From assembly GCF_017464355.1 (NCBI RefSeq), contig NZ_JAFUAG010000027.1:124001-188000 (forward strand): a DNA stretch of 64,000 bases, in the 5' to 3' direction. Made by a program: the position numbers and the translations under genes. The stretch is from Ruminococcus sp. GTDB lineage: Bacteria; Bacillota; Clostridia; Oscillospirales; Ruminococcaceae. Position 1 is the first letter of the stretch; each line of letters begins with the position of its first letter. The notes under the pieces were generated by a model. The model was given only the letters and a program-made list of their open reading frames with translations, was not told the DNA's origin and ran no database searches. Of this stretch, positions 24,237 through 41,119 are shown piece after piece.

Positions 24237-24520
24237 AGCGGCATATTGCTGCCCTGCTGACAGCAGTGGTAATGGCGGCAGCGCTGGTGCTGTCCATTTG
24301 CTGCATTGAGATACACGGCGGTCACGATTGCTGCGGCGAGGGCTGCAGTATCTGTGCGGTGCTGGAACAGTGCGCAAAACGTCTGGGCGGTGCAGGCAAT
24401 GTCGGGCAGATGACTGTGATCATTGCGGCCTTTGGCACAACTGTCTTTATCTGCATAAAGGTAGTGGAGTTTTTTTGTAGAAAATCTCCCATAGGGCTGA
24501 AAGTGGTGCTGCTGAATTGA
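24233..24520 (+). CDS. Small Cys/His-rich membrane protein of the zinc regulon
   Basis: 95 residues, overlapping zur by 4 bases and therefore translationally coupled. An N-terminal hydrophobic segment (AALLTAVVMAAALVLSICCIEI) and a second one (MTVIIAAFGTTVFICIKVVEF) flank an external loop with HGGHDCCGEGCSICAVLEQC, containing two His and six Cys that could bind metal. I do not know a named family. Position suggests a role in zinc handling or sensing at the membrane. Confidence 0.7.
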   Translation: MKRHIAALLTAVVMAAALVLSICCIEIHGGHDCCGEGCSICAVLEQCAKRLGGAGNVGQMTVIIAAFGTTVFICIKVVEFFCRKSPIGLKVVLLN

Positions 24521-24586
24521 TGTTGGCTGTGCGTATATATAATGGTATATCATCGGACAGAATAACATCAAACGGAGGATCTTATA

Positions 24587-25561: not shown

Positions 25562-25717
25562 CAGCGCTCCCGCAATGGGGGATAAAAGTCCCGAAAACAG
25601 GACAGAAGCGCAAAGCCCGTCGGGAAACACACGGCATAGTGTGATATCGGATGAGCCAATTTTCATCAAAAATGCAAAAAGCATTCACAGAAACAATAAA
25701 TTACGGGAGTAATGTAA

Positions 25718-26437
25718 ATGGGTAAGCAGATAGAATGTAAAAACTGCACACTGGGATATGAGGGCGTAGCCGTTACGGAGGACATAAACTTCACCGTAAG
25801 CAGCGGCGATTACCTCTGTATACTGGGCGAGAACGGCTCGGGCAAAAGCACGCTGATAAAGGCGCTGCTGGGACTTCGGCCTGTAATGAACGGTAATATC
25901 GAGTGGGTAGAGTCCAAGCAGGGCGAGATAGGCTACCTGCCCCAGCAGACCGTTGTGCAGAGGGATTTTCCCGCTTCGGTCAGGGAGATAGTGCTTTCGG
26001 GCTGTCTGGGCAAGGGCAGCTTCAGGCCTTTTTATTCAAAAGAGGATAAGGAACTGGCGGATAAGACCATGACGGAGCTTGGCATAAAAGATCTGGAAAA
26101 GCGTTGCTACCGTGAGCTTTCGGGCGGACAGCAGCAAAGGGTCCTGCTGGCGAGAGCCCTTTGTGCAGCTGGGAAGATACTGCTGCTGGACGAGCCTGTC
26201 ACAGGCCTTGACCCCAAAGCCCAGAACGACCTGTATGAGCTTATCGCTAAACTGAACAAGCAGGGTATCACCATTATCATGGTCTCCCACGATATACACG
26301 CTGCGGTCAGGTATGCCAGCCATGTGCTGCATATCGGCAGCAAGAAGCAGCTGTTTTTCGGCACCAAGGACAAATATGTCAACAGCAAGCTGGGACAGAG
26401 CTTTATTCTTTCGGAGGAGGCTGAGGATAATGAGTGA
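25718..26437 (+). CDS. znuC: Zinc ABC transporter ATP-binding protein
   Basis: 239 residues. Walker A GENGSGKST (about 38-46), Q-loop LPQQTVVQRDFP, signature LSGGQQQRVLLARAL, Walker B ILLLDEP and switch His in VSHDIH are all intact. It powers the metal importer together with the following permease, whose start codon overlaps its end by 8 bases. Confidence 0.92.
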   Translation: MGKQIECKNCTLGYEGVAVTEDINFTVSSGDYLCILGENGSGKSTLIKALLGLRPVMNGNIEWVESKQGEIGYLPQQTVVQRDFPASVREIVLSGCLGKGSFRPFYSKEDKELADKTMTELGIKDLEKRCYRELSGGQQQRVLLARALCAAGKILLLDEPVTGLDPKAQNDLYELIAKLNKQGITIIMVSHDIHAAVRYASHVLHIGSKKQLFFGTKDKYVNSKLGQSFILSEEAEDNE

Positions 26438-27332
26438 GATCATGGATAAGCTGCAGTATTACTTTGCCTACCCCTTTGTGAGGTATGCACTGATCGTCGG
26501 TCTGCTGATAGCGCTTTGCTCATCTCTGCTGGGGGTAACGCTGGTGCTTAAGCGGTTTTCTTTCATCGGCGACGGACTTTCCCATGTGGCTTTCGGAGCA
26601 ATGGCGGTTTCCACCGTGCTTTCTGTGACGCTGAAAAAAATGTCGGGGGGCGAGAGCGCCTTCGGGAAATTTCTTGAAGATACCAACGGCATGGCTATAA
26701 TACTTCCCATAACGCTGCTCTCGGCGGTGCTGCTGCTGAGGACGGGGCAGAACACCAAGATAAAAGGCGATGCCGCTGTGGCCATGATATCTGTGGGGGC
26801 GCTGGCGCTGGGATATATGCTCATAAATCTGTTTCCTGCTTCTTCCAATGTGGCAGGCGATGTTTGCAGCACTCTGTTCGGTTCAACGTCCATACTCACC
26901 CTGACAAAGGGGGAGGTCTGGCTGTGCGCCATACTGGCAGTTGTGGTGCTGGCGGTGTTCATTATTTTCTACAACCGCATTTTTTCCGTTACCTTTGATG
27001 AAAACTTTGCAAAGGCAAGCGGTGTCAAGGCTGACGGCTACAACCTCATCATCGCCGTGATAACAGCACTTATCATCGTGCTGGCCATGACCCTGGTGGG
27101 CTCGCTGCTCATCTCGGCGCTGATAATTTTCCCTGCCCTTTCGGCCATGAGGCTTTTCAAGAGCTTCAAAAGCGTTATCATCTGCTCGGCTGTGATATCT
27201 GTTTTATGTGCAGGCGTGGGCATAATAGTTTCCATACTCTGCTCTACACCGGTGGGCTCTACCATAGTTTCGGCGGATATCATCGTGTTCGGCATTTTCA
27301 GCCTGACTGCGGCATTGACAAGGAGGAACTGA
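26430..27332 (+). CDS. znuB: Zinc ABC transporter permease (ABC-3 family)
   Basis: 300 residues from the ATG at 26430, after GGAGGAGGCTGAGGATA and overlapping znuC. Eight or so membrane segments; FIGDGLSHVAFGAMA and AMTLVGSLLISALIIFPALSAM are typical of the ABC-3 family that transports Zn2+ or Mn2+. The lipoprotein gene starts one base after its stop, so the unit continues. Confidence 0.92.
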   Translation: MSEIMDKLQYYFAYPFVRYALIVGLLIALCSSLLGVTLVLKRFSFIGDGLSHVAFGAMAVSTVLSVTLKKMSGGESAFGKFLEDTNGMAIILPITLLSAVLLLRTGQNTKIKGDAAVAMISVGALALGYMLINLFPASSNVAGDVCSTLFGSTSILTLTKGEVWLCAILAVVVLAVFIIFYNRIFSVTFDENFAKASGVKADGYNLIIAVITALIIVLAMTLVGSLLISALIIFPALSAMRLFKSFKSVIICSAVISVLCAGVGIIVSILCSTPVGSTIVSADIIVFGIFSLTAALTRRN

Positions 27333-27934: not shown

Positions 27935-27970
27935 GAGAGCGTGGACAGTTCCACGCTCTCTTTGTTTTTT
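27935..27970. terminator. Bidirectional intrinsic terminator
   Basis: GAGAGCGTGG pairs with CCACGCTCTC, followed by TTTGTTTTTT. It closes the zinc operon and, on the other strand, the DUF4132 operon. Confidence 0.9.
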
Positions 27971-30900
27971 ATATCGACGGGGCTGCCCCGAGTACGGAGG
28001 TCAGCTGCATGATAAGTTCACTGAAATATCTTTCGCTGACACTGCCTATCTCCAGGGGCTGATAGCGGTAGTAGCTGCTGTCGGGGGTACTGAGCTCCAG
28101 TTTGCCTACAGTTACTTCCTCGCCCTCAAAGTCATAGTTGACTATGCTCGCCCCAGAGAACACCAGATATGCACGGGTGCCTGCGGCTGTCCAGCTGCCG
28201 TCCGCCTGCCTGGTGCGGCTGCTTATATCCTCACGGTAGAAGTAGTAGAAGAACCCTGCGTCCTCAGCCTGACCCTTGTACCAGCCTATCTTGGTAAGCT
28301 TGCCTATGAGAGAAAGGCTGTTCAGCTCTATGCCGTCAAAACGCAGTATCTCCGTGGACTTGCGCTCCTCATCGGTCATGCGGAAGATCCTTCTGTCAAG
28401 CTGCGGGAAGGGCTGGGTGATCTCGTAGTCTTCCAGCTGCTCCTTCCAGGCGGATATCTGTTCCGCTGTCAGCTCCAGCGGGTGAACAAGACCTATCTTT
28501 GCGTTATCGGGAATTGTCAGCTCATCGTCATCTACCGAGTTGAAGCTGCCCTCCTCGGTGTAGCGGAAGGTGTCTGTCAGCTTGCCGCTGTCATCGTACA
28601 GCCCCCAGATGAGCCCCATGGCGAAGCCGTGCATAACTGCGTTCTTCACGAAAAGCTCCTTCCAGCCCTCAGCTGTCCAGCGGCGGTCGTTCATAAGCAC
28701 GCTCTCGAGTCTGGCGGACTGGTTGGCTGCTACGGTCTTCAGCTGCTTTTTCATCTCCTTGAAGTCAGCTGTTGCTGCTGCGGCTTTTTCTGCATCATCG
28801 CCGGCTGCGGGCTTGGGCAGATTTTTTACCTGCTTATCCCCGTTGAATATCTGCAGGACATTGCCTGCACCCAGGTATACCTTGAACTGCCTGGGGCCGA
28901 AGTCGAATTCACGGCACATATTCTCATCAAAGCCCAGGTCGGGTACTATCTTGTCGGCCAGCTCGTCGGTGGTCAGCCCCAGTTCCTCGGCGGCATTCCT
29001 CAAAGCGTCGGCCGCTGCACCGCGCACCATTTTGTTCTTGAACTTGCGGGACATACCGTCCACGTTCATAAGGGCGGTCTTGCTGCCGCTGAGCGCCATG
29101 GCCCGTACAGCCTCGGAAGCTATAGCCCCACGGGAATTCTCGCCCCAGAACTTTATGTAGTGCATGAAGCTTTCCTCCACAGCGCTGCCCCCGTGGAGAG
29201 CCGTAAAGTACAGCACCCACTTGGTCTTGGCCTGCGCCCCTGCGTCTACCCATTTAGCGAAGACATCTGCGGCAAAGGCGGCCAGCTCGCGCTTGTTGAG
29301 TTTTTCTGCCAGCACGTTTGCAGTGGGGCTCGCCCCGAATTCTGTCATGCCTGCGTAGCACATCATCAGGGCTTCGAGGTACTTGCGCTCACACTCGCTG
29401 CCGTCGGCATTGTGTACGGTCTTGGTGGAGCCGTCAAAGGCAAAGGCGACTTTTCTGGCCTTGCCGCCCTTGGTCAGCTCCTCCACAGGGTCAACAGCCG
29501 AGGGCTTTGTGCTGTCCTCGGGTGCCGCGGGAGCAGCGCCCAGCAGCAGGGCAGCCTTATCCTTTATCTTGGCAGACTTTTCCTTTTCATACAGCGCTTC
29601 AAGCTCAGTCCTGTAATCGGCAGCACCCTGCTTCTCGATGATAGCCAGTGCCAGTTCACGGGCGGAGGCTTTCTTCCTGGTCAGCAGTGCAGCTATGTCA
29701 TCGTGCCAGATGTTCATGCCTGCCATGCACTTTGTAAGCTCGGTCTTGACAGCCTTGCTGGTATCCTCAGCCATAGCGAAAAGCTGTGCTTTGTAGCGCT
29801 CGGGGTCACGGCTGTAGGCCATGGCTGATATCTGTCTGCCCAGGGCGGGAAGCTCTGCATGGTCAACTTTGTCCAGCGCCTCCTTATGGTCAGTGCCGAA
29901 AGCGGCAGCTATCTTCATGGCAGTGGACTCCTTATGAGAGTAGAGAGTATCGATGTAATTGCTGAGGGTCTTCAGTATAGTAGTGGGGTGCAGCCCTGTT
30001 CTCAGCAGCATTTCCACGGACTTGTCAGGTTCATCGGTGAACTCGAAGCCTGTGGCTCTATTTATGATGAAGTCCTTGCTCCAGCCCATATCCGCCATTA
30101 CCAGCACCGCATAGTAGCGGCAGAAGAAATCCTCCGACCCAACAGATGAGTAACAAGTGCATACAGGACGCTCACGGGTCGTCCATTTCAGGTCGGTCAG
30201 GGTGGGAAGTACCTCTTCAAGGGTCTTTCTGCCGTTGATGTAATCCACCATTTCATCTGCGGCGGGCTTATCAAAGCCTGTCCTTATAATATCGGCAGCC
30301 TGCTCTCTTATGGCAGCGTTAATATCGGGGCAGGGAAGTCCCAGCTCTTTCAGGGTGTCGGCAAGGGTCCTCATGACTATGGGGTCATCGGTATTCAGCA
30401 CGGCCTCTGTGAAAGCTTCGGTGTGATTTTTCGCCATTTTTCTGAGGTGAGCATTGACGAGCTCATGATCCGTTTCGGGGTATCTTAGGTAGAATGCCAC
30501 ATATATGGCAGCGTACTTGGTGCAGAGCAGGGGCTCCTCCTCGATGACATCAAGGGCTTTGTAGCAGAAATTCTTCATGACCACATTTGTAAGCTTTTTG
30601 GTGTCATGCTTGGCATACATCACGGCCTTTGCCCTGGCGGTGCTGTCAAATCTGCCCAGCTCTGTCATCAGCAGGTAAAAACTGAAGTTCGTGTCATCGG
30701 GGGTGCCTGCGGTACCGTTTGGCTGAATGTCAGCAGCGTACTTTGCTATGTGCTTTACGATATTGTCAGCCTTGTCGGTGTGTTCGAGCGCAAGGGCATA
30801 TATGGAGTTGGCCATACGTCTGTTGGTCTGGGCGATGATATCGCCCATCTGCATATATTCCTCGGCAGACCTGCCCTTGTAGATGTAATCTCTGTTCCTC

Positions 30901-31340
30901 AGTATATTGCCTGTACACCACACACAGGTAAAGGCCTCGGCGCAGAGCCTTGCCTTTTCTCTGCCCAGCCAGCCTGTCAGGGCTCTTTCGAAAAGTGCGC
31001 TGCATTTTTGGGGAGAATTGTTGTCGGTGACTATGCTGTCTACCAGCCCCACACAGCTGACCCCGACGGCTGCCCACAGAAAGCAGAGGAAACGGTCGGT
31101 CAGCTCATTGTTATTTGCCCTTACTATCTCCAGGTTGACAGCCTTTTCGTACTTGCCCTTGTCTGTGATGGGTCTGCCGTAGACAGCACACAGGGTAACA
31201 TTGGAAAGTATCCCGTAGTCCACAGGCTTGCTCATATCCATGAATTCCTCGAAAAACGGGCGGTTCTCCTCCAGCATACCCTGCTTTACCAGCAGCTCGC
31301 CCAGGCTGCTGCCCTTCATTGGTTGTTGTGCGTAGATCAT
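27969..31340 (-). CDS. DUF4132 (MolR/YehI-like) protein, last gene of the AAA/VWA operon
   Basis: 1123 residues from the ATG at 31340, with AAAGGAGAT 6 bases upstream. The first ~750 residues are helical and repeat-like, resembling HEAT-type scaffolds. The C-terminal third matches the DUF4132 domain of E. coli YehI/MolR: LRFDGIELNSLSLIGKLTKIGWYKG... followed by DAGFFYYFYRED. There is no signal peptide. Function is unknown in any organism to my knowledge. It starts 19 bases after the SWIM gene and is the largest member of a five-gene unit. By analogy with other MoxR-VWA systems it may be the effector or the scaffold. Confidence 0.75.
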   Translation of the reverse strand: MIYAQQPMKGSSLGELLVKQGMLEENRPFFEEFMDMSKPVDYGILSNVTLCAVYGRPITDKGKYEKAVNLEIVRANNNELTDRFLCFLWAAVGVSCVGLVDSIVTDNNSPQKCSALFERALTGWLGREKARLCAEAFTCVWCTGNILRNRDYIYKGRSAEEYMQMGDIIAQTNRRMANSIYALALEHTDKADNIVKHIAKYAADIQPNGTAGTPDDTNFSFYLLMTELGRFDSTARAKAVMYAKHDTKKLTNVVMKNFCYKALDVIEEEPLLCTKYAAIYVAFYLRYPETDHELVNAHLRKMAKNHTEAFTEAVLNTDDPIVMRTLADTLKELGLPCPDINAAIREQAADIIRTGFDKPAADEMVDYINGRKTLEEVLPTLTDLKWTTRERPVCTCYSSVGSEDFFCRYYAVLVMADMGWSKDFIINRATGFEFTDEPDKSVEMLLRTGLHPTTILKTLSNYIDTLYSHKESTAMKIAAAFGTDHKEALDKVDHAELPALGRQISAMAYSRDPERYKAQLFAMAEDTSKAVKTELTKCMAGMNIWHDDIAALLTRKKASARELALAIIEKQGAADYRTELEALYEKEKSAKIKDKAALLLGAAPAAPEDSTKPSAVDPVEELTKGGKARKVAFAFDGSTKTVHNADGSECERKYLEALMMCYAGMTEFGASPTANVLAEKLNKRELAAFAADVFAKWVDAGAQAKTKWVLYFTALHGGSAVEESFMHYIKFWGENSRGAIASEAVRAMALSGSKTALMNVDGMSRKFKNKMVRGAAADALRNAAEELGLTTDELADKIVPDLGFDENMCREFDFGPRQFKVYLGAGNVLQIFNGDKQVKNLPKPAAGDDAEKAAAATADFKEMKKQLKTVAANQSARLESVLMNDRRWTAEGWKELFVKNAVMHGFAMGLIWGLYDDSGKLTDTFRYTEEGSFNSVDDDELTIPDNAKIGLVHPLELTAEQISAWKEQLEDYEITQPFPQLDRRIFRMTDEERKSTEILRFDGIELNSLSLIGKLTKIGWYKGQAEDAGFFYYFYREDISSRTRQADGSWTAAGTRAYLVFSGASIVNYDFEGEEVTVGKLELSTPDSSYYRYQPLEIGSVSERYFSELIMQLTSVLGAAPSI

Positions 31341-31359
31341 TTTTTTATCTCCTTTCGTA

Positions 31360-33150
31360 TCATTCATGCTCAGGCTGCATTTTTGCCAGGGCACTTATTG
31401 TCTGAAGTCTTTTTTCACCTGCACGGATATAATCGTACAGCACCGTCATCTTCTGCATGATGTCCGCAGTGCTGCCCCCCGTGCTGTGACGGTAGGCGCC
31501 TGCCAGCGCAAGAAGCTCCTCCGTCATTGCCGCAAGATTTCCCATGCCGCAGTTTTTTGCCTGCCGTGCCAGCTTGTCCTCGTCCCGTATCTGAGAACGA
31601 AGTCCGCAGTGTACGATAAAATAAAGGGTCTCACGAAGCTTTGCGAAGAGTTTCAGCAGTTCCTCCGCATACACCGCCTGCCCCTCGGCACCGTCGTACT
31701 TCTCGGGCAGAAAATACTGCTTGTCATCAAAGGGGGTTATGAAGTCGTATATCTCCACGGGGAACAGCACCAGCTCGCCTTCCTCGATGCTTGCTATCCC
31801 TAAGAAGGTAAAGCGCTTTTCGTCCTTTTCCCTGAGCATACGAGTGGCTATCTTTTCCAGCTGGTCGATGAAATCTTTGGTCTCCGCCTGATATTTCGCC
31901 CGCACCTTCATGCGGCAGCCCCGCCAGTCCTCGATCTCCATGATGAACTGCTGGCTGTATTTATCGAACCTGTGATATCGGCAGCCCGCCGCTGTCACGA
32001 AGAACAGCCTGTCCGTTTCAAGGGGGCCTGCCTCGTCAAGGGCAGCGGCTATCTCACGGAAATCATCTTTGATAAGTTGAAGCACCGCAGGGCAGTTCAG
32101 CCCTGCATTTGACTGGCTGATGACCCTTGTGCTTCCCGAGGAGGAAAGCTTCTCGCCGCTGACCTTAGCTCCCGTAAGCACCATGCGACTCTTCATGACA
32201 TTGCGTATGGGTACGCCTAAGTCCCAGGGGGTGGTGACAGCATACCTCATACGGGAGTTTTTCTCATAGTAGGCAGGCCGCAGCTCTGACATTGTGAGGA
32301 AGGTCTGTCCCGTGACCTTGTTCTCGTCCAGAAAATAGAAGATATCTCCCTCGAACTCACCGCCCCGCACCTGTCTGCCGCCTATGGGCAAAAGGGTCAG
32401 GGCGCCTTTGACCTCGGTGTAGCTTTTGCGGAACTCACCCAGCTCCGTAACGGGTATGCCATCTCTTTCAAGGCGGGCAAGCTTCTTGTCCGTGCGGCAG
32501 AGTTTTTCTGCAAAAGCCTGCCCGTCAAAGGCCGCGCGTCTGCCCAGGTGCTGGCTGAGTTTTCCGCCTATGTCACGCATCATTCGCTCGGCATCGGCGG
32601 CACGGACAGCGTGGCAGCGCACCGCAGCGGCTTCGATACGAGCGGGCATATCCTCGGGCACCCGCACCAGACCGCTTTCAAGTATCTCCCGCAGCAGCCC
32701 CCTGCAAAGGGCAGCGCACTCATGCACCTTGGCTTCGTCCCTGGGTGGAAGCTTTTCTGCCTCGGGCTCGGCTTTCGCTGCCGCCGAAGTTACTCCCGCC
32801 CCGGGAGCTTCTTCCTGTTTCACCTCAGCATTGTCTTCCGCCGCGGGGGCCTGTGCGGGGACTTCCGCAGGGGGCAGAGTATTCTTCAGCAGCACCAGCG
32901 CCCCGACTATATGCCTGCACACCGCCCGTGAGGGGCAGCTGCAGCTGCTTTGTTCAAGGGGGTCTTTCAGGGTAACGGTCTCGCCGCCGAAGGGGATAGT
33001 TATGCTGTCCTCGTTCTCGGTGAACTCACAGGGAGCGCCCTCGGCGTCCTTGCAGGCACGCTTGTAGGTGCCCTTGTTGGCCAGCCCGATGAGATAGTCC
33101 TCGTCCGCCAGAGAAATTTTCTGTCTTAATTTTTGTACAGTTTCTGTCAC
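31360..33150 (-). CDS. SWIM zinc-finger protein (YehQ-like)
   Basis: 596 residues, GTG start at 33150 after GGAGGTGAGATA. A SWIM zinc finger, CSCPSRAVCRH (C-x-C-x5-C-x-H), lies at about residues 70-80, followed by a Glu/Ala/Pro-rich linker to about 130 and a long, mostly helical region without a recognised catalytic motif. SWIM fingers bind DNA or proteins. It starts 13 bases after the VWA stop. Its place in the operon matches YehQ beside YehP in E. coli. Confidence 0.75.
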   Translation of the reverse strand: MTETVQKLRQKISLADEDYLIGLANKGTYKRACKDAEGAPCEFTENEDSITIPFGGETVTLKDPLEQSSCSCPSRAVCRHIVGALVLLKNTLPPAEVPAQAPAAEDNAEVKQEEAPGAGVTSAAAKAEPEAEKLPPRDEAKVHECAALCRGLLREILESGLVRVPEDMPARIEAAAVRCHAVRAADAERMMRDIGGKLSQHLGRRAAFDGQAFAEKLCRTDKKLARLERDGIPVTELGEFRKSYTEVKGALTLLPIGGRQVRGGEFEGDIFYFLDENKVTGQTFLTMSELRPAYYEKNSRMRYAVTTPWDLGVPIRNVMKSRMVLTGAKVSGEKLSSSGSTRVISQSNAGLNCPAVLQLIKDDFREIAAALDEAGPLETDRLFFVTAAGCRYHRFDKYSQQFIMEIEDWRGCRMKVRAKYQAETKDFIDQLEKIATRMLREKDEKRFTFLGIASIEEGELVLFPVEIYDFITPFDDKQYFLPEKYDGAEGQAVYAEELLKLFAKLRETLYFIVHCGLRSQIRDEDKLARQAKNCGMGNLAAMTEELLALAGAYRHSTGGSTADIMQKMTVLYDYIRAGEKRLQTISALAKMQPEHE

Positions 33151-33163
33151 TATCTCACCTCCC

Positions 33164-34309
33164 TCAGCTCAATATGCTGCCTATGTGTTCCCCTAACTGC
33201 TCGGGGGTCATGGCACCGACGAATGCGCCCATATCTGCCAGCTTCTGACCCAGCACCCTGTCAAAGGCCGCATTTGCGTTCTCATCAAGGGCGGTCAGGT
33301 AGCTGAGCTTTGCGCCGCTTGTGATTATGTTTCTGCTTACGTTCATCAGGCGGTCTTCTCTTCCGCCCTCATACAGGTCGGTGACACATATGACCGCCGT
33401 CTGTGAGGGTGTGGTGATAAGGCTCTCGCAGTAGGTCATGGCCTTGCCGATGTCAGTTCCGCCCCCCAGCTGCACGCTCATCAGCACCTCCGCAGGCTCT
33501 TCCGCCCGGCCGCTGAGGTCTACCACATTGGTATCGAAGATGACCAGCTTGACCTCTGCAAAGGGCAGTTTGGAGATGATCTGCGCCATGACCGCACTGT
33601 AGATAATGGAGCTTGACATGGAACCGCTTTCGTCCACGGCGATGATGACAGTCTTGTTGTTGAAGCGCTTTACCCTGTTGGAAAAATATATCTCTTTCAG
33701 CATGAGCTGTTCGCTGTCACTGTCGTAGTTTTTCAGGTTGCGGCGGATAGTCTTTTTTATATCAAGATTTCTCGCTGAATGTATGGGGCTCGAGCTGTTG
33801 CGGTCAAGCCTGCCCATTACCGAGCGCCGCACCGAGTTCTCCAGCTTTGCACGCAGCTCCTCGGCCACCTGTGCCGCCACCCGCTTGGCAGTTTCCAGCA
33901 CCTCGCCCCGCATAAGGTGCCGCAGGGAAAGTATGGTCTTTAAAAGCTCCATGTTCGGGGTCATCTTTTCAAGAACTTCCTTGTCGGTCAGCAGCTCTGT
34001 CAGCCCGAATTCATCGAGGGCGTGCCTTTCCAGCACCTCTGCGGTCTGTCTGGGGAAAAGCTCACGCACCCTGGTTATCCACCTGGCGGCGGTTATCCTT
34101 GACTCACCTGTGCCCCCCGTCCTTGACTCGTTCTCGCGGACATCATCGCCACCCGAACGGCTGTAGAGGTAATCGAGCAGCTGCTCCATGTCCGCAAAGC
34201 TTTTCAGCTCCTCGCTACTGCCCGAAAACTCCAGGTCACGGTCGGACTGGCTGCCAAGCACCAGCCGCCAGCGGTTCACCGAAAGGGCTTTCTGTTCAGC
34301 CTCTGTCAA
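33164..34309 (-). CDS. VWA-domain (CoxE/YehP-like) protein
   Basis: 381 residues with a TTG start at 34309: AAGGAGGTGAGCAG lies just upstream, and TTGA overlaps the preceding gene's TGA. The N-terminal half is helical. The C-terminal von Willebrand A domain has a full metal-ion-dependent adhesion site: DESGSMSSS (DxSxS), the Thr of GGTDIGKA, and the Asp of CVTDLYEGG. VWA proteins of this type partner with MoxR AAA+ ATPases to remodel or metallate a client protein. Overlap with the DUF5682 gene indicates fixed stoichiometry. Confidence 0.85.
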   Translation of the reverse strand: MTEAEQKALSVNRWRLVLGSQSDRDLEFSGSSEELKSFADMEQLLDYLYSRSGGDDVRENESRTGGTGESRITAARWITRVRELFPRQTAEVLERHALDEFGLTELLTDKEVLEKMTPNMELLKTILSLRHLMRGEVLETAKRVAAQVAEELRAKLENSVRRSVMGRLDRNSSSPIHSARNLDIKKTIRRNLKNYDSDSEQLMLKEIYFSNRVKRFNNKTVIIAVDESGSMSSSIIYSAVMAQIISKLPFAEVKLVIFDTNVVDLSGRAEEPAEVLMSVQLGGGTDIGKAMTYCESLITTPSQTAVICVTDLYEGGREDRLMNVSRNIITSGAKLSYLTALDENANAAFDRVLGQKLADMGAFVGAMTPEQLGEHIGSILS

Positions 34310-36723
34310 AACTGCTCACCTCCTTCAAGCTGCGCCGTGATAAGGCTGTCCAGCTTTCTTCCGAAATCGTAAAGTCCCTCATCTATCATGTCGCCGTCCA
34401 GCACATCTTTTTCCTTAGCCCCGTGAAGTGCGGCGGCCACACCTGCTATCTCCTGTATCTCAGAGGGTGTGAAGTAGGAGAATGCCAGCCTCATGGAAGG
34501 CAGTATCTCCATAAAATCCTCAGTGCCGAAGCCTGTGAGCAGGGAGTCTGTCAAGTGCAGAAAAGAGTCGTCTGCCAGCACGATATCTCCCGCAGTGCTG
34601 AAAAGCCCCCGCAGGTAGTCAGCCCCCTGCTTGCGTACCTCGGAGGAACCGCTGAGGTAGCCCCGCATGGCATTTTCCGCATCGGTGCGGCGCTCAGCTT
34701 CAATAGCATACAAAAGCCCCATTACCGCCCCGTAGACCGTGGGTTCCTTATCCTTTGCACCTGCCATGGTAAGCAGGGCATCTTCCAGGGAATCCCGCCA
34801 CATGGCCAGCACGCCTCCTGTCAGGCTGAACATTATTTTAAGTATGCTCACCACCTCGTCCGCCTTATCCGAGGGTGTGTTCGCCATGGCGGGCAGGGAG
34901 GATATCAGCTTTGCCATGCACCTGTTCATGTATTCAAGGGAAGAACTGTCCTCAAATTCGTACAGCTTGCGCAGGTCGTAAAGTCTGCCGAAGCACCTGA
35001 GCCCCTCGCCCACCGAGAAGAAGTCGCCGTCATTGGTGACAGCATCTTCAAGCAGTGCCAGCTGGTTCTTGTCAAGGGCAATGCCCATGAGGAAGCAGTT
35101 TATGGCAGTGTGGGCGCCGTCCGCACAGCGCCTGCGGTCAGCAAGTACTCTCGTGGCCGCCGTGGTGCAGGCCTCCTCAATGGTGAAGCCGTCAGTGGTG
35201 CGGTCGATGAGGGCAGCATCGACGTTGGGTGTGCGGCGGTATGTCCACAGCTCGTGTACACGGCTGCGGTCCCGTCCATGGTGTAGGTCGGGACCCTTGG
35301 CAAGCTTGCAGAAGCCTGTTTTCAGGTATTCCATGCGGTGGAAAAATCTGCTGAGCGCCAGCCCCTTTCCTCCGCCGAAAAGTGCCACGTCCGACTCCAT
35401 GGGCACACCTATCTGGTATTTCAGCCTGAAGCTCTCGCACTGCTTTTCAAAGTCAGCCACCAGGGGCGGGACATGGCTTTTGTCGCCGATACGGCCTACA
35501 CCTTCACCCGTAGCTATGCGCTGCATGATAGCCAGCGGCATGGAGGAGGACAGATTTTTCTCGCCCTTGATAAACGCTGAAGTAACACCGTCCATGACCT
35601 CGGCGAGGCCTGTCTGGCTCACGTTCCTCAGCGCCGCCAGACCTGTCATCACACTTTGGGCAGAGGTTATGTCCGCTATGGAAACGGGTATGTCCTTTTT
35701 TGAACTTTCCCTTGCTGTTCTTATCAGCAGTTCAAGGCAGGCATCGTTGTACACATTCCCGGGGTCATCGCCCTTTTCAAGACGGGTGGTTATGCCGTCG
35801 TAGAACCCGGGGCACATCATGCCCGAGGCATAGCCGTGCAGGGCATCAGCAGCCTGATAGGAGTAGGCTGTGGGGAAACACCCCTGCTGGTCCGCGGGTA
35901 TCCTGTGCAGCTTTTCAGCCTTGAACTTGCCCTCATGCAGCAGCCTTGCCAGACCCAGGCTGTGCAGTCCCCCTGTGACCACCAGCACCTTTTCGCCGCT
36001 GTCGAGGGCTTCCTTTATGCGCAGCGCCATGTGCCTTTCACGGGCGAGGGTGCCATCGGCTTCAAGCTCGGCTGGGTCTTCATCATTTCGGGTCAGCACG
36101 CAGTAGGTGTGCATATTTTCGCAGAATTCTCCCGGGGTAAGCTTAAGTCCCTCTATCTCAAAATACTTCTCCCAGAATTCCTCAAAGCTGCGCATGCCTG
36201 TTTTCTCACAGAGCCTGCTGTAGAACTTTGAGCGCACCAGACGGCTGTCATCGGTGTAGCTGTGCTTGTCCGCCGCCTTTCTCAGACCCTTGCTCTGGGC
36301 GGTATTTATCAGTATCTCGCAGTAGGGCAGGTCGATGAAGCGGGCGGGTATGCCCCGCTTTGCACCCTCTGCAATGGCATTGTACTCAGGCGAAGAAAGC
36401 AGGAAAGGATAGTAGCACTTGTAGTCCTCCCCGTCTTCGCTGACCAGCTTTTTCTTGTCCTTGTAGTAGTAATATATGGCCGCAGGAAGCTCTGTCTGCT
36501 CATCAGTCAGCACGGGTATGAGCTCGTTGGCATTTTCAGGTCCCTCGATGAGTATGACCGTGGGCGAAAATTCCTCCACCGCCCGCCGCAGCTGAAAAGC
36601 GCACACAGGGCTGTGGTGCCTTACGGGGAAAAGCAGCAGCTTTCCCAGGGGGTCATACCTCAGCAGCTGACCCGCAGCGCCTGCTATCTCAGCAATGCGG
36701 CTGTCTCTGAATAAGCCTTCCAT
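34306..36723 (-). CDS. DUF5682 (YehM-like) protein
   Basis: 805 residues. The N-terminal ~270 residues carry LFPVRHHSPVCAFQLRRA, VILIEGPENANEL and VLVVTGGLHSLGLARLL; the last is a G-x2-H motif, and the set is reminiscent of the TraB/ChaN-like hydrolase fold, though this is my inference. The rest is helical with no known motif. Its start overlaps the AAA+ gene by 40 bases, and its stop overlaps the VWA start. E. coli YehM is the recalled counterpart. Biochemical activity unknown. Confidence 0.75.
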   Translation of the reverse strand: MEGLFRDSRIAEIAGAAGQLLRYDPLGKLLLFPVRHHSPVCAFQLRRAVEEFSPTVILIEGPENANELIPVLTDEQTELPAAIYYYYKDKKKLVSEDGEDYKCYYPFLLSSPEYNAIAEGAKRGIPARFIDLPYCEILINTAQSKGLRKAADKHSYTDDSRLVRSKFYSRLCEKTGMRSFEEFWEKYFEIEGLKLTPGEFCENMHTYCVLTRNDEDPAELEADGTLARERHMALRIKEALDSGEKVLVVTGGLHSLGLARLLHEGKFKAEKLHRIPADQQGCFPTAYSYQAADALHGYASGMMCPGFYDGITTRLEKGDDPGNVYNDACLELLIRTARESSKKDIPVSIADITSAQSVMTGLAALRNVSQTGLAEVMDGVTSAFIKGEKNLSSSMPLAIMQRIATGEGVGRIGDKSHVPPLVADFEKQCESFRLKYQIGVPMESDVALFGGGKGLALSRFFHRMEYLKTGFCKLAKGPDLHHGRDRSRVHELWTYRRTPNVDAALIDRTTDGFTIEEACTTAATRVLADRRRCADGAHTAINCFLMGIALDKNQLALLEDAVTNDGDFFSVGEGLRCFGRLYDLRKLYEFEDSSSLEYMNRCMAKLISSLPAMANTPSDKADEVVSILKIMFSLTGGVLAMWRDSLEDALLTMAGAKDKEPTVYGAVMGLLYAIEAERRTDAENAMRGYLSGSSEVRKQGADYLRGLFSTAGDIVLADDSFLHLTDSLLTGFGTEDFMEILPSMRLAFSYFTPSEIQEIAGVAAALHGAKEKDVLDGDMIDEGLYDFGRKLDSLITAQLEGGEQF

Positions 36724-37778
36724 GCGCCACCGTTCCTTTTCGCCTTCTCGTTGACAGATGTCCTGAAATAAGCTTTCAGCTTTTCAAGGTCGTCCTTGTT
36801 CTCCTTGCATACCGCCCCCAATAAGTTCTGGGTCAGCACCCGCAGATCGGCTCTGCCGTCACCGTAGTACCAGCTGTGGCTGATAGTCTGGTAGAATACC
36901 GATACAGCTTCTGCCGTACTCATGACCGCCGCAGGCTTTTCGACTATAGTACCCTCAGCGGTCTTGCCCTCACGAAGCTCATGGTAGGTAACAGCCAGCA
37001 GCTCGGCCACATCAGTATCAACAGGACAATCGATATGCCCCGCCTTTGCCATGTTCTCGGCCTCACGGATTATTATCTCCTTTTCAAGACGGACATCTGC
37101 GATAGGCTCAACGGTCTCAAAATTAAAACGTCGTTTCAGCGCCCCCGACATTTCGTTTACGCCCTTGTCACGGGTGTTGGCGGTGCCTATGATATTGAAG
37201 CCCGGCTTTGCCAGCACAAGCCCCTCATCGCCCAGCTCGGGGATATTCAGTATCTGGTCACTCATAACAGAGATGAGGCTGTCCTGTATCTCGGCGGGGG
37301 TACGGGTGATCTCTTCAAATCGTGCGAAGACACCTTTCTCCATACCTATCAGCAGGGGAGAGGGCACCAGCGCTTCACGGCAGGGTCCTTTTGAAAGCAG
37401 CAGCGCATAGTTCCAGCTGTACTTTATCATATCCTCGGTTGTGCCTGCGGTACCCTGGACAGTATTGGTGCTTACCCCGCAGCAGGCCGCTGACAGCAGC
37501 TCGGAAAGCATGGTCTTGGCAGTGCCGGGTTCGCCCACCAGCATAAGGCCGCGGCTGCCCGCAAGGGTGATTATGCACCTTTCCACCAGGGCGTCATTGC
37601 CGTAGAATTTTCTGGGGATATCCATATCACCCGCCTTGCCGCCCAGAATGAACGTGCGCACAGCTTTAGGCGAGAGCCGCCAGTTTTCGGGCTTTCTGCC
37701 TGTATCATTTTCTTCCAGCGCCCTGAGCTGGTCGGCATACCTGACCTCAACGGGGGGCTTGATAAAATTCTGTTCCAT
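36684..37778 (-). CDS. MoxR-family AAA+ ATPase (YehL-like), first gene of the operon
   Basis: 364 residues from the ATG at 37778, with AAGGAGG 5 bases upstream. Walker A is VGEPGTAKTML (about 80-90). The Walker B region reads ARFEEITRTP, with Glu in place of the usual Asp. Sensor 1 is IIGTANTRDKG, and an Arg-rich ALKRRFNFE follows. MoxR ATPases form hexamers that act as chaperones with VWA partners, one of which lies two genes downstream. It is transcribed from its own promoter 100 bases upstream. Confidence 0.85.
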   Translation of the reverse strand: MEQNFIKPPVEVRYADQLRALEENDTGRKPENWRLSPKAVRTFILGGKAGDMDIPRKFYGNDALVERCIITLAGSRGLMLVGEPGTAKTMLSELLSAACCGVSTNTVQGTAGTTEDMIKYSWNYALLLSKGPCREALVPSPLLIGMEKGVFARFEEITRTPAEIQDSLISVMSDQILNIPELGDEGLVLAKPGFNIIGTANTRDKGVNEMSGALKRRFNFETVEPIADVRLEKEIIIREAENMAKAGHIDCPVDTDVAELLAVTYHELREGKTAEGTIVEKPAAVMSTAEAVSVFYQTISHSWYYGDGRADLRVLTQNLLGAVCKENKDDLEKLKAYFRTSVNEKAKRNGGAWKAYSETAALLR

Positions 37779-37874: not shown

Positions 37875-37903
37875 ATTATAACATATCTGTTTATAAATAG
37901 CAA
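37875..37903 (-). promoter_or_regulatory. Promoter of the AAA/DUF5682/VWA/SWIM/DUF4132 operon
   Basis: Minus strand: TTGCTA, 17 bases, TATAAT. It lies between the alarmone-synthetase terminator and the AAA+ start, so the operon is transcribed on its own. Confidence 0.6.
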
Positions 37904-37967: not shown

Positions 37968-38762
37968 TCAGTATATGGGTACATCGAAATTCTTCATCTT
38001 CTCGAAGAGTATGTCGTCCTCCGAGGGAATGTCCGCAGCCTGCTCTATCTCGCTGCGTATGCTCAGCATCTCGCGGTCGGTGGAGGATATGACCTCGGCA
38101 CAGGCACGAAGACGGTCAACTATCTCCTGCTCGTTTTCCACCGCCTGCTTGTATTTCAGCTGATGTTCCAGACTTGCCCAGAAATCCATGGCTATGGTGC
38201 GTATCTGGACTTCCACCCGCATATCACGCTTTTCTTCCGCAAAAAACACAGGCACACTGACTATCAGGTGCAGGCTGCGGTAGCCGTTGGGTTTGGGGGA
38301 AGCTATGTAGTCCTTGCGGGCGATAAGGGTGATGTCGTCCTGCTGTATGAGGGCATCAGCAATGGAATATATGTCATCTATATAAGCGCAGATGACCCGC
38401 ACGCCAGCCACGTCGCTGAGGTTCTCCTCGATGGTCTGCGGGTTCATGGGCAGGCCTTTCTTCGCCAGCTTCTCGGCTATGCTGGAGGTACGCTTCAGCC
38501 TGGTGCTTATGAACTCAATGGGGTTGCGGCGGTAGCGCACGTTGAACTCGGTGTTCAGCACATCGAACTTTGTCTTGACCTCCTTGATAGCACAGGTGTA
38601 CATCATCATAAGCTCCTTGTACTCCACCATGGTGCCCAGTATCTGCTTGGTCTGGCTATATACGAACTGCACCTCGTCATTGCTCAGTGCAGGCAGGGCG
38701 AGGTCGCTGCTGTTTATCACATCGTTGAAAAGCTCTCCGAAATTCTGTTCTCTGTCACTCAT
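37968..38762 (-). CDS. Small alarmone synthetase, RelA/SpoT homologue (RelP/RelQ type)
   Basis: 264 residues, the size of single-domain (p)ppGpp synthetases. The catalytic region shows RLKRTSSIAEKL, DVAGVRVICAYIDDIY, ARKDYIASPKPNGYRSLHLIV and VEVQIRTIAMDFWASLEH, matching the RelA_SpoT fold that transfers pyrophosphate from ATP to GDP or GTP. There is no hydrolase, TGS or ACT domain. It has its own promoter and terminator but lies between the WYL pair and the AAA+ operon, all on one strand. Confidence 0.9.
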   Translation of the reverse strand: MSDREQNFGELFNDVINSSDLALPALSNDEVQFVYSQTKQILGTMVEYKELMMMYTCAIKEVKTKFDVLNTEFNVRYRRNPIEFISTRLKRTSSIAEKLAKKGLPMNPQTIEENLSDVAGVRVICAYIDDIYSIADALIQQDDITLIARKDYIASPKPNGYRSLHLIVSVPVFFAEEKRDMRVEVQIRTIAMDFWASLEHQLKYKQAVENEQEIVDRLRACAEVISSTDREMLSIRSEIEQAADIPSEDDILFEKMKNFDVPIY

Positions 38763-38871: not shown

Positions 38872-39840
38872 TCACTGTTCGCCCTTATTCATCATCAGCC
38901 CGAACTGCCTCATCACCCTCTCCCGTGCCTTTGCCCGCATATGGAGCGGGCCTGTTATCTCCAGAGTGGGGCCGTAGCCCAGCAGACGTATGAGCAGCTC
39001 GGTCTCGTCGTTGCGGTCGTACCACAGCCTGACTTTCACGGTGCCTTCCTCACTGCGCTCGGTGCGCTTTTCGTAGGCTGCAAATTCCATGAGAAAACGC
39101 TCGTCGGCGCCCCTTTCATTTTTCACTGTTATCTCCAGAGGCTCGCTGCACCGCAGGGTGCTTTCGTCCAGTGCTGCGGGCTTAGCCTTGCTGCTGCTTT
39201 TGCTTACCTCCTCTACCCTCGCCAGATTTATGACGGAAGTGCCGTGCCTTACCGAGGTGCAGTGTACCCTGAATTTGTCGTCCTTTTTCGAGTATTCTAA
39301 TTTGCAGGGTAAAAAATCACCCTCTATCACCTTGCCGTAGCGGCTTATGAACCTTATGCAGATAAGCTCTTCAGCTTTCAGCGCTTTAAGCACCATGCGG
39401 AAATTTCTGCGGTAAACGGGGTCGGTGTAAGGGTCGCCGTCGCTGTACCTGTCGGGACACCGCATATCCTCTGCCGAGTAAAGGGGCGGTATCTCACCCA
39501 GCCTTTCCCAAAGCAATGCCAGCTCCCTGTCATCAAGAAAAAGCCATGCCCTGGGGTCGTCAAGCTGGGTGCGCAGCCAGCGCTTCTGCAAAGTGGTCAG
39601 GACTTTCGGGGGTTCTATGACGGTAACGGGGTGCAGTACCCCTGCCTTGTCGCGGGAAAGCAGACCCCAGTCGCTGCCGTCCTCCTGCGGTATAAGCTTT
39701 TTGTCCAAAAAAAGACCCGTTTCCCCGAAGCCCTCCTCGGCTATCAGCTTGCGCAGTTCGCTTTCGGTCATGGAATGCTCGCTCAGCACATGGGTGATTA
39801 TGCGGAAGTATGTCCCGTAAAGCTCACTGAATATCTTCAT
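38872..39840 (-). CDS. WYL-domain regulator, second of the pair
   Basis: 322 residues from the ATG at 39840; an ATG at 39846 is an alternative. The start lies inside the preceding gene (overlap about 17 bases), so translation is coupled. The middle contains a WYL-type module (ICIRFISRYGKVIEGDFLPCKLEYS, FRVHC, INLARVEEV), and the end has a WCX-like region (VRLWYDRNDETELLIRLLGYG). No clear DNA-binding helix-turn-helix is visible, so it may act with its partner. WYL domains sense ligands or nucleic acid and often control defence loci. Confidence 0.7.
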   Translation of the reverse strand: MKIFSELYGTYFRIITHVLSEHSMTESELRKLIAEEGFGETGLFLDKKLIPQEDGSDWGLLSRDKAGVLHPVTVIEPPKVLTTLQKRWLRTQLDDPRAWLFLDDRELALLWERLGEIPPLYSAEDMRCPDRYSDGDPYTDPVYRRNFRMVLKALKAEELICIRFISRYGKVIEGDFLPCKLEYSKKDDKFRVHCTSVRHGTSVINLARVEEVSKSSSKAKPAALDESTLRCSEPLEITVKNERGADERFLMEFAAYEKRTERSEEGTVKVRLWYDRNDETELLIRLLGYGPTLEITGPLHMRAKARERVMRQFGLMMNKGEQ

Positions 39841-41059
39841 CGTCATCGCCCCCGTACATTTCATACATTCGCTTTATGTCGCTGTAAAACCGCTTCCGCA
39901 GACTTTCGGTGCCGCCCTCCAGCCTCTTTATCCTCCCTATGAAAGTCTTGACCCACTTCATGGCTTCGGTGGGGTCGCAGATATCCAGCGTTAACGTAAA
40001 TTCGTTCTCGCCTGTCTTTTCAAGAGTCCCGCAGCGCTTCTCCCGTTTCAGCCTGTCGATGATGTACTGCTCTTTCACTTCATCTGCATAAATGACTATG
40101 ACCAGCGGCTCAACGTCTTTTGTTTCTGCAAATGAGACCCCGAAGGAGCGTGCGCAAAGCTCATCGTAGCGGGTTTTTATCTCATCGTAGTTGTCGAAGA
40201 CAGCCCCTGCCTTCGGCCTGGGCATATAGTCAAGCCTGAAAGTCATATACTTGTCACCTCCTGGGGAATATGCTGCCAGGAACCGCCTGCCTGTCTGCAC
40301 CGAGGTGATGACCTGCATGGGCAGTACATTGTGGGTCACATCGTTTTTGAAGCTGCCCACCGTCAGCAGGCGGTGCTGTGCCATGGCCTCGGTAATGATA
40401 AGCATGACCTCATCTTCAAGCACATGGACTATGTAGTTGTGCTTTATGCAAAAATGCTCGTTCTTCTGCTCGGTCAGCCTGAGTATGCTGTTGCCCGCCA
40501 CCCCGAAAACTGCGGCCTCGGAGAAGAATTTAACCATATCGTACATACCCTCGCTGTCAAGGATATTCTCTGCCAGGTCGGGGCTGAGCCTGTACAAAAC
40601 GGACTTGCCCTGCTTTCTGCTGAGGACTATTCCTTCCTCTGCATACTCTTTCAGCTTAAGTCGGAGGGTCTGTTCTTCGGGGGAAAAACCAAAGGCCTCC
40701 CCCAGCAGGGAACAGAGTTCCCCTGCGGTGTGTTCCTCGCCGTCACAAAGAATATCCAGCGTGAGAAAATGCATACGCACATCGTTCTCAGTAAAGCTGC
40801 GGGTGTAGAAAGCCTGATACAGCGGGTTTTCGGTGATGTGGGCAGAGTCCACCGAGATAGCCACCTGCTTGCCCCTGACCGAGTCATCATACACCAGATG
40901 TTCCCCCAGCCAGCTTTCCACACGGCGCTTTTCGTCATCGTAGGTGCGTGCGCTTTTCTTATTGAAATCGCCACGCACCTTGTAGCCGTAGATAAAAAAG
41001 TCACGCACATAATCACGGGTCTTGTCGAAATTCTTTATAAGCTCGGAAAAACCTGCCAT
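39824..41059 (-). CDS. WYL-domain regulator, first of the pair
   Basis: 411 residues from the ATG at 41059, after AGGAGGGTGACT. The N-terminal half includes a helix-turn-helix-like region (FLTLDILCDGEEHTAGELCSLLGEAFG, about 100-130), followed by a WYL-like domain (KHNYIVHVLEDEVMLIITEAMAQHRLLTVGSFKN; YMTFRLDYM) and a C-terminal part ending in an acidic tail. Likely a transcription factor for its own or the adjoining units. It is divergent from carA with promoters back to back. Confidence 0.65.
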   Translation of the reverse strand: MAGFSELIKNFDKTRDYVRDFFIYGYKVRGDFNKKSARTYDDEKRRVESWLGEHLVYDDSVRGKQVAISVDSAHITENPLYQAFYTRSFTENDVRMHFLTLDILCDGEEHTAGELCSLLGEAFGFSPEEQTLRLKLKEYAEEGIVLSRKQGKSVLYRLSPDLAENILDSEGMYDMVKFFSEAAVFGVAGNSILRLTEQKNEHFCIKHNYIVHVLEDEVMLIITEAMAQHRLLTVGSFKNDVTHNVLPMQVITSVQTGRRFLAAYSPGGDKYMTFRLDYMPRPKAGAVFDNYDEIKTRYDELCARSFGVSFAETKDVEPLVIVIYADEVKEQYIIDRLKREKRCGTLEKTGENEFTLTLDICDPTEAMKWVKTFIGRIKRLEGGTESLRKRFYSDIKRMYEMYGGDDDEDIQ

Positions 41060-41119
41060 AGTCACCCTCCTTTTTGCAGACATAGTCAAACTGTACTGCC
41101 ATTCGTTTTGTTAACTATA

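What the first reader, a model, noticed from the sequence alone, without database searches (positions are those of the whole stretch)
27969..37778. Five-gene MoxR / DUF5682 / VWA / SWIM / DUF4132 operon with no known function
Seen: a AAA+ ATPase with MoxR features, a DUF5682 protein, a VWA protein with a full metal site, a SWIM zinc-finger protein and a 1123-residue DUF4132 protein are encoded head to tail. Their starts overlap or lie within 20 bases, under one promoter (37875-37903) and one terminator (27935-27970). Established (from memory): the same five families occur together in E. coli as yehL, yehM, yehP, yehQ and yehI, also uncharacterised; MoxR-VWA pairs remodel client proteins. Inference: a conserved ATP-driven machine in which DUF4132 and SWIM are client or effector parts, possibly a stress or conflict system.
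Basis: partly seen in the sequence, partly recalled or inferred. Interest (0 to 1): 0.82.

Follow-up and report, generated by a model that had tools for sequence, protein, structure and literature searches.

The report
ATP-driven machine with a predicted hydrolase
Five neighbouring genes that travel together from gut clostridia to E. coli appear to build a protein-remodelling machine, and one long-mysterious part looks like an enzyme related to the TIKI/TraB hydrolases, which gives an uncharacterised E. coli operon a testable function.

Summary
In detail: a YehL-type MoxR ATPase, DUF5682, a CoxE-type VWA protein, a SWIM protein and a 1123-residue DUF4132 protein are encoded head to tail; E. 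coli yehL/M/P/Q/I are the same families.

Co-occurrence is strong. Of 396 genomes of the family, 68 carry DUF5682 over its cut-off: 31 type A, 31 type B, 6 fragmented. All 31 type A genomes hold DUF4132; type B has a HEAT-like protein instead in 28 of 31 loci. A and B are separate, fully supported sides of MoxR and DUF5682 trees that span phyla.

Main new result: the DUF5682 N-terminus resembles TraB/TIKI hydrolases (86% profile-profile at each of two motifs; 30 control families at most 4%), and His36, Glu60, Arg228, Glu229, His254 are invariant in 81 of 81 sequences. Against it: ChaN and EreA comparisons and a full-length fold search gave no support.

Best explanation: MoxR-VWA remodels a client chosen by DUF4132/SWIM, and DUF5682 hydrolyses it (enzyme step inferred). 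Dedicated phage defence is weakly supported: yehM is in 5284 of 5426 E. coli genomes and PADLOC does not match. Leucine-rich-repeat cassettes inside some operons keep a recognition or conflict role open.

The parts
36684..37778 (-). MoxR AAA+ ATPase, YehL-type, 364 aa; Walker A GEPGTAKT, second acidic motif RFEEITR (Glu-Glu where Asp-Glu is usual; that usual form is recalled)
   Evidence: motif R.EEI[ST]R in 80 of 82 ORFs scanned
34306..36723 (-). DUF5682, 805 aa; N-terminal alpha/beta region with TraB/TIKI-like motifs, then a mostly helical C-terminal part
35960..36620 (-). TraB/TIKI-like region of DUF5682 (about residues 35 to 254: His36, Glu60, Arg228, Glu229, His254; approximate limits)
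   Evidence: invariant in 81 of 81 sequences; profile-profile match to TraB
33164..34309 (-). VWA (CoxE-type) protein, 381 aa, complete metal site
31360..33150 (-). SWIM zinc-finger protein, 596 aa (CSCPSRAVCRH), with a C-terminal helical module that is a separate gene of about 110 aa in 19 of 65 relatives
27969..31340 (-). DUF4132 protein, 1123 aa; HEAT-like middle, conserved DUF4132 domain near the C-terminus
36684..36723 (-). 40-nt overlap of the MoxR and DUF5682 genes, in 68 of 77 relatives
   Evidence: AGGA upstream of the ATG
37875..37903 (-). promoter-like site TTGCTA-17-TATAAT
   Evidence: consensus only
27935..27960 (-). terminator-like hairpin, also scored on the other strand
   Evidence: consensus only

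Best explanation
The operon encodes one self-contained machine. SHOWN by sequence: a YehL-type MoxR ATPase, a VWA protein with a complete metal site, a SWIM protein, a large partly HEAT-like DUF4132 protein, and DUF5682 with a TraB/TIKI-like region; these parts are inherited together. INFERRED: the MoxR ring and the VWA protein work as a remodelling motor, as in NorQD and RavA-ViaA; DUF4132 and SWIM hold or select the client; DUF5682 cleaves a peptide or ester bond in it with the His36-Glu60 pair, His254 and probably Glu229. ATP hydrolysis by MoxR exposes the client or opens the enzyme. The client is either general or encoded elsewhere. I put the conserved remodelling module at 0.9, DUF5682 as a TraB/TIKI-superfamily member at 0.8, and the complete mechanism with an active hydrolase at the confidence given.
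For: Unit: 52 of 63 loci with enough downstream DNA hold all five families; 31 of 31 type A genomes hold DUF4132, 24 of them on the same contig 1.5-8.4 kb from DUF5682; MoxR lies beside DUF5682 in 61 of 62 A and B loci. Hydrolase: profile-profile probability 86.3% at motif 1 against all 11 TraB sequences, 86.0% at motif 2 against four PrgY-like ones; 30 control families at most 3.9%, 45 column shuffles at most 0.41%, reversed at most 0.38%; weak single-sequence Pfam hits to ChaN in 22 of 56 and TraB in 12 of 56 members; key residues invariant in 81 of 81. The 24-residue His-Glu spacing is near the 28 residues of known TIKI enzymes (PMC6254334, passages). The AlphaFold2 model (mean pLDDT 89.8, pTM 0.84) shows alternating strands and helices in that region. 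Motor: MoxR-VWA action in PMC7159879 (section 8) and PMC13036017 (abstract). No client operon: of 676 neighbouring ORFs in 78 loci, only one small gene cluster recurs next to the operon.
Against: Profile-profile against two ChaN and three EreA sequences gave 1.6% and 0.7%, and against seven TraB sequences alone 29%. Foldseek with the whole 805-residue model gave no match at E 0.001 or better in the PDB, and no TIKI protein among the 50 rows shown of 932. Weak Pfam hits to PI3_PI4_kinase (9 of 56 members, best 7.3e-5) and ssDNA-exonuc_C (7 of 56, best 0.0039) are individually better than those to ChaN or TraB. The first Gly of the GX2H motif is Pro in 64 of 81. Members of the superfamily can be inactive: PMT lacks the catalytic motif (PMC6254334). 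No activity, interaction or phenotype was tested.
Confidence: 0.42

Rival explanations
1. A metal-cofactor insertase or maturation chaperone like NorQD or CoxDE: MoxR-VWA twists a client enzyme open to insert a metal, and the other proteins hold the client or metal.
For: MoxR plus CoxE-type VWA; NorQD precedent (PMC13036017, abstract); DUF4132 has been linked to molybdate metabolism through MolR (PMC8533742, passages); in this window the operon faces a FUR/ZnuA/ABC/ABC-3 zinc-uptake cluster.
Against: No client enzyme recurs beside the operon. The best NCBIfam hits of the MoxR are far below cut-off (27.6 bits of 475). A TraB/TIKI-like hydrolase is not expected in an insertase.
Confidence: 0.17
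2. A conflict or anti-phage system with the logic of the MoxR-vWA-VMAP ternary systems: DUF4132, HEAT or LRR parts sense an invader, MoxR-VWA is the switch, DUF5682 is the effector.
For: Patchy in the family: 68 of 396 genomes, and 3 of the 8 same-genus genomes listed. LRR genes lie between operon genes in four loci, 15 of them in L033. Tandem HEAT copies: two in L107, four in L143; two DUF4132 genes in L079, L164, L169. LRR_5-DUF4132 fusion (L191). Precedent in PMC7159879 (passages and section 8). Iodobacter plasmid copy lies near restriction genes.
Against: PADLOC-DB: no match for the five window proteins or ten relatives. yehM in 5284 of 5426 E. coli genomes, 5289 of 5291 places on chromosomes. 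The enzyme is not swapped: DUF5682 is constant while the solenoid changes.
Confidence: 0.2
3. A DNA-damage or nucleic-acid-linked remodeller: DUF4132, often with a WGR domain, and SWIM bind damaged DNA or its proteins, and the machine clears them.
For: WGR fused to DUF4132 in Agrobacterium vitis; WGR protein YehF near yehI; Deinococcus DRA0166 (DUF4132) and DR2173 (WGR) rise after mitomycin C depending on IrrE (PMC8533742, passages).
Against: The window protein has no WGR. Those Deinococcus genes were not shown to belong to this operon. The SWIM motif does not prove DNA binding.
Confidence: 0.13
4. DUF5682 keeps a TIKI-like fold but is a non-catalytic binding part (for example a ligand or haem sensor like ChaN), and the machine only remodels.
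For: Weak hits to ChaN, described as haem-binding, in 22 of 56 members; inactive superfamily members exist (PMC6254334).
Against: His36, Glu60, Glu229 and His254 are invariant in 81 of 81 sequences of both types, which a pure binding role would not require.
Confidence: 0.13

Closest known systems
E. coli yehI-yehK-yehL-yehM-yehP-yehQ
   Same: Same five families; MoxR 47% identical. The E. coli proteins group with type A in both trees.
   Different: DUF4132 gene lies first; a pseudogene copy (yehH), yehK and a WGR protein (yehF) lie nearby; SWIM similarity covers only 67 columns. Function unknown there too.
RavA-ViaA and NorQ-NorD (MoxR-VWA pairs)
   Same: MoxR ATPase with a VWA partner encoded together; YehL is one of seven named MoxR subfamilies (PMC3893208, passages).
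   Different: Neither pair is described in what I saw with DUF5682, SWIM or DUF4132 partners.
MoxR-vWA-VMAP ternary conflict systems (PMC7159879)
   Same: MoxR and vWA with further proteins in one operon; repeated or recognition-type domains in some loci.
   Different: No Pfam or PADLOC sign of conflict-system parts in the five proteins; the presumed effector is constant; no SWIM, WGR or EreA is mentioned in that paper's main text.
TraB/PrgY/TIKI/erythromycin-esterase superfamily
   Same: Two motifs in the right order, His-Glu pair, R...M...I before the second motif.
   Different: DUF5682 has a long mostly helical C-terminal part and a MoxR-VWA context; first motif mostly P-V-R-H, not G-x-x-H.

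Membership tests
YehL subfamily of MoxR AAA+ ATPases | Groups with E. coli YehL and not with another MoxR type | tested here: inconclusive
   47% identity to YehL and same side of the MoxR tree, but the tree holds only YehL-type A and B sequences, no other MoxR subfamilies.
YehL subfamily of MoxR AAA+ ATPases | Walker A and arginine-rich LKRRF motif present | tested here: met
   Walker A in 80 of 82 and LKRRF in 80 of 82 ORFs scanned; window sequence.
YehL subfamily of MoxR AAA+ ATPases | VWA partner gene nearby | tested here: met
   69 of 80 loci, several of the rest cut by contig ends.
TraB/TIKI superfamily (DUF5682) | Profile-level sequence similarity | tested here: met
   86% against TraB sets; 30 control families at most 3.9%. 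ChaN 1.6% and EreA 0.7% with only two and three sequences.
TraB/TIKI superfamily (DUF5682) | His after the first strand and Glu about 28 residues later | tested here: met
   His36 and Glu60 in 81 of 81; spacing of the known enzymes from PMC6254334 passages.
TraB/TIKI superfamily (DUF5682) | Two GX2H motifs (recalled definition) | tested here: inconclusive
   Second motif G251xxH254 in 81 of 81; first has Gly in 17 of 81 and Pro in 64 of 81.
TraB/TIKI superfamily (DUF5682) | TIKI three-dimensional fold | tested here: inconclusive
   Good model but whole-protein Foldseek showed no TIKI protein in the 50 rows listed; the domain-only job never ran.
TraB/TIKI superfamily (DUF5682) | Hydrolase activity | not testable with these tools
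   Needs purified protein.
MoxR-vWA-VMAP conflict system | VMAP component | not tested
   No VMAP profile was searched by name; Pfam and PADLOC scans of the five proteins named no conflict component.
MoxR-vWA-VMAP conflict system | Variable effectors around a constant switch | tested here: not met
   DUF5682, the likely effector, is present in both types; the solenoid changes instead.
Dedicated metal insertase (NorQD, CoxDE type) | Client enzyme gene next to the pair | tested here: not met
   No recurring client gene in 78 loci.
Known anti-phage system (PADLOC-DB 2.0.0) | Match to a PADLOC model | tested here: not met
   0 of the 5 window proteins at E 0.001, 0 of 10 relatives at E 0.01.

The most novel reading that the evidence does not exclude
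A new class of ATP-dependent hydrolytic machine, nearly universal in E. coli and scattered through other phyla: a MoxR-VWA motor feeds a TIKI-fold protease (DUF5682), with an exchangeable recognition solenoid (DUF4132, DUF5691 or a HEAT protein) that some lineages extend with arrays of leucine-rich-repeat proteins. I recall no AAA+ motor coupled to a TIKI-type enzyme.
Probability: 0.3. Interest if true: 0.85.

Novelty: new variant of a known kind. Interest (0 to 1): 0.55.

Why it matters
yehLMPQ/yehI is near-universal in E. coli (yehM in 5284 of 5426 genomes) yet has no known function. Naming DUF5682 as a probable TraB/TIKI-type hydrolase gives point mutants to make and substrates to look for. 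The two-type architecture shows which part is constant (MoxR, DUF5682, VWA, SWIM) and which is swapped (the solenoid). If right, it would add a hydrolytic member to the MoxR-VWA machines, which have been seen mainly as remodelling and metal-insertion chaperones.

Tried and rejected
Whole-model Foldseek in the PDB found helical-repeat proteins and 14-3-3 proteins, none at E 0.001 or better; uninformative for the N-terminal domain. PDB sequence searches with DUF5682, SWIM and VWA gave nothing convincing. The type B HEAT protein is not detectably related to DUF5691 (hhalign 0.4%), and DUF5691 not to DUF4132 (0.4%). The 110-aa helical protein did not match E. coli YehK. The one phage hit, MT835988, is an unverified 14-kb scaffold from faeces that begins with MoxR and carries the other genes; I do not count it as a phage gene. 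The 1.7-kb-residue DUF5724-DUF4132 proteins (about 1,700 aa) are a different architecture and were kept apart. The DUF4132 hit of the single type B genome G774 gave no match to the operon-type DUF4132 profile at E 1e-5. L014, the weak DUF5682 hit in G244, looked TraB-like by eye only. At class level the co-occurrence of the two DUFs is not significant (1 of 245 genomes with both, p 0.07); the family sample carries that claim, and its genomes are related, so its p values (1.6e-19) are not independent-sample probabilities. A literature search of the held open-access library found no paper with DUF5682 and only passing mentions of yehL/M/P/Q in the rows listed (listing only).
Full report
WHAT IS THERE. 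The five genes are present as described. They lie on the minus strand from 37778 down to 27969, with junctions of 40-nt overlap, 4-nt overlap, 13-nt gap and 19-nt gap. Pfam places them in AAA_5, DUF5682, VWA_CoxE, SWIM and DUF4132. NCBIfam gives no named function.

E. COLI. MG1655 has yehI (DUF4132), yehK, yehL (MoxR), yehM (DUF5682), yehP (VWA), yehQ (SWIM) in that order, with identities of 36, 47, 25, 39 and, over 67 columns only, 33%. yehM matches in 5284 of 5426 complete E. coli genomes, over at least 80% of its length in 5166; 5289 of 5291 places are chromosomal.

CO-OCCURRENCE, NEAR RELATIVES. DUF5682 is found in 77 of 80, VWA in 69, SWIM in 65, DUF4132 in 55, all five in 53; of the 63 loci with at least 8.6 kb after MoxR, 52 hold all five. 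This set is chosen by MoxR similarity. The gene order varies: L021, L025 and L029 have VWA-SWIM-DUF4132 before MoxR-DUF5682; L079 has two DUF4132 genes before MoxR.

CO-OCCURRENCE, FAMILY SAMPLE. In 245 genomes of the class DUF5682 rings in 4 (3 over cut-off) and DUF4132 in 6. In 396 genomes of the family, which include most of an earlier sample of 119, DUF5682 is over its cut-off in 68 and DUF4132 in 45. The full-length DUF5682 scores fall in two groups, 283-372 bits (31 genomes, type A) and 459-540 bits (31 genomes, type B); 6 more are fragmented. DUF4132 is in 31 of 31 type A genomes, 1 of 31 type B (G774, whose region gave no match to the operon-type DUF4132 profile) and 1 of 6 fragmented ones; 12 genomes have DUF4132 without DUF5682, nine of them with reading frames of about 1,680-1,780 aa. 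In type A, DUF4132 is on the same contig as DUF5682 in 24 of 31.

TYPE B. Reading the type B loci shows SWIM - HEAT-like protein of about 600 aa - MoxR - DUF5682 - VWA. The HEAT-like protein is in 28 of 31; L152 and L155 are cut by contig ends and L108 (G274) lacks it. It is not in Pfam, but its profile matches the middle of DUF4132 (89.4%, 186 columns; three unrelated controls at most 0.2%), a region that itself matches HEAT-type designed proteins in the PDB (best E 1.5e-8). That may be shared repeat character rather than common descent. In Rhizobium, Methylosinus and Deinococcus plasmids the corresponding gene is annotated DUF5691.

OTHER PHYLA. tblastn of DUF5682 found 29 plasmid-collection records, some of them whole chromosomes by size. 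I opened 10 of the 29. Proteus, Nonomuraea, Iodobacter and Agrobacterium are type A; Methylobacterium, Rhizobium, Methylosinus, Deinococcus and Fusobacterium are type B-like; Nocardia shows SWIM, MoxR, DUF5682 and VWA with the fifth gene unresolved. In trees of 57 chosen rows, the 37 A and 20 B rows separate with 100/100 support for MoxR and 100/99 for the DUF5682 N-terminus. I labelled rows B when the HEAT-like profile matched or, for five loci, by the neighbourhood, and A otherwise; the program warns of long branches.

DUF5682 IS PROBABLY A TraB/TIKI HYDROLASE. In the alignment of 56 relatives the invariant blocks are RHHSPxC, EGP, CYYPF, D131, RE..M and GGxH. Scanned singly against Pfam, 22 of 56 members give weak hits to ChaN and 12 to TraB, but also 9 to PI3_PI4_kinase and 7 to ssDNA-exonuc_C, with better best E-values. 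The N-terminal profile of 81 sequences (56 plus 25 from other loci; none dropped) was compared with TraB sequences fetched for the purpose: 86.3% against all 11 at motif 1, 86.0% against four PrgY-like ones at motif 2, 29% against the other seven. A global alignment of both motifs scores 95.7%, though its middle carries no clear similarity. Thirty control families reach at most 3.9%, reversed TraB at most 0.38% and 45 shuffles at most 0.41%. Two ChaN and three EreA sequences give 1.6% and 0.7%. His36, Glu60, Asp131, Arg228, Glu229, Met232, Gly251 and His254 are invariant in 81 of 81; the sequences were trimmed around the first motif, so its alignment there is partly by construction, but the pattern missed none. 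TIKI enzymes use a 2His/2Glu set with a His-Glu pair 28 residues apart (PMC6254334, passages); here the pair is 24 apart. The AlphaFold2 model is confident but the whole-chain fold search is dominated by helical repeats. The domain-only test could not be run.

OTHER PARTS. MoxR keeps Walker A and LKRRF, and carries R.EEI[ST]R in 80 of 82 ORFs scanned. The VWA D.SGS motif is in 69 of 69 and the SWIM C.C..C.H in 65 of 65. The SWIM protein ends in a helical module; it is fused in 43 of 65 SWIM loci and in the window (window E 5.4e-6), and a separate gene of about 110 aa in 19 of 65; the remaining three are cut at the end of the locus. The 40-nt overlap of MoxR and DUF5682 is found in 68 of 77 loci, the start being ATG in 67 of 68 with a ribosome-site-like motif upstream in 60 of 68 (27% at random positions; the MoxR codons may contribute).

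RECOGNITION MODULES. Four type A loci carry BspA-type leucine-rich-repeat (LRR_5) genes between the operon genes on the same strand: L033 (15 LRR genes: five before MoxR, five between MoxR and DUF5682, five after), L036, L116 and L188. One DUF4132 protein (L191) begins with LRR_5, Leptospira LIC_12901 has LRR, WGR and DUF4132 (PMC11674859, passages), and the Agrobacterium vitis DUF4132 has WGR. The HEAT-like gene is in two (L107) or four (L143) tandem copies. I take this to mean that the solenoid is the recognition part.

MECHANISM. MoxR-VWA pairs are thought to grip a peptide through the VWA metal site and to remodel the bound protein by ATP-driven motion (PMC7159879 section 8; NorQD abstract). 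Most MoxR pairs that I know sit beside their client (recalled). Here 676 neighbouring ORFs in 78 loci show no recurring partner apart from the small SWIM-tail gene: the other five recurring clusters occur in 5-11 loci at median distances of 0.8-5.7 kb. The simplest reading is a self-contained machine with its own enzyme. Shown: gene content, conservation, co-inheritance. Inferred: complex formation, ATP coupling, hydrolysis, client choice.

CONFLICT OR HOUSEKEEPING. Against a dedicated defence system: no PADLOC match, near-universality in E. coli, constant enzyme. For it: patchiness in the family, tandem and LRR expansions, plasmid copies. A damage link rests on Deinococcus proteins of the same families that rise after mitomycin C (PMC8533742, passages). 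I prefer surveillance or quality control of proteins, with defence as a real rival.

NOVELTY. The families and the E. coli cluster are known, and YehL is a named MoxR subfamily (PMC3893208, passages). I found no paper in the held library that mentions DUF5682; subscription literature is not covered. The assignment of DUF5682 to the TraB/TIKI superfamily and the A/B architecture appear to be new, within that limit.

Noticed in passing
window 37968-38762 (-): A RelA/SpoT-type small alarmone synthetase gene (YjbM-like) ends about 190 nt upstream of the MoxR start, with a terminator-like site between.
   Followed up: partly
window 38872-41089 (-): Two adjacent regulators with WYL/WCX similarity upstream of the alarmone synthetase.
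   Followed up: no
window 23823-27332 (+): A FUR-family regulator followed by ZnuA, ABC ATPase and ABC-3 permease genes, a likely zinc-uptake cluster convergent with the operon.
   Followed up: partly
L033 5482-20959; L036; L116; L188: LRR_5 genes inserted between genes of the operon on the same strand, 15 in L033; looks like an expandable recognition cassette.
   Followed up: partly
L191 5492-7858 (+): LRR_5 and DUF4132 in one 788-aa protein in a genome without DUF5682.
   Followed up: partly
L143 and L107: Four and two tandem copies of the type B HEAT-like gene.
   Followed up: no
L059 11196-14762; L056 13556-14608: A UvrD-type helicase gene between MoxR and DUF5682 (L059) and a RhuM-family gene between DUF5682 and VWA (L056).
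   Followed up: no
window 36684-36723: The 40-nt overlap of MoxR and DUF5682 is kept in 68 of 77 relatives, a short stretch coding in two frames.
   Followed up: partly
window 36684-37778, motif RFEEITR: The second acidic ATPase motif reads Glu-Glu instead of the usual Asp-Glu (usual form recalled), in 80 of 82 ORFs scanned and in E. coli YehL.
   Followed up: partly
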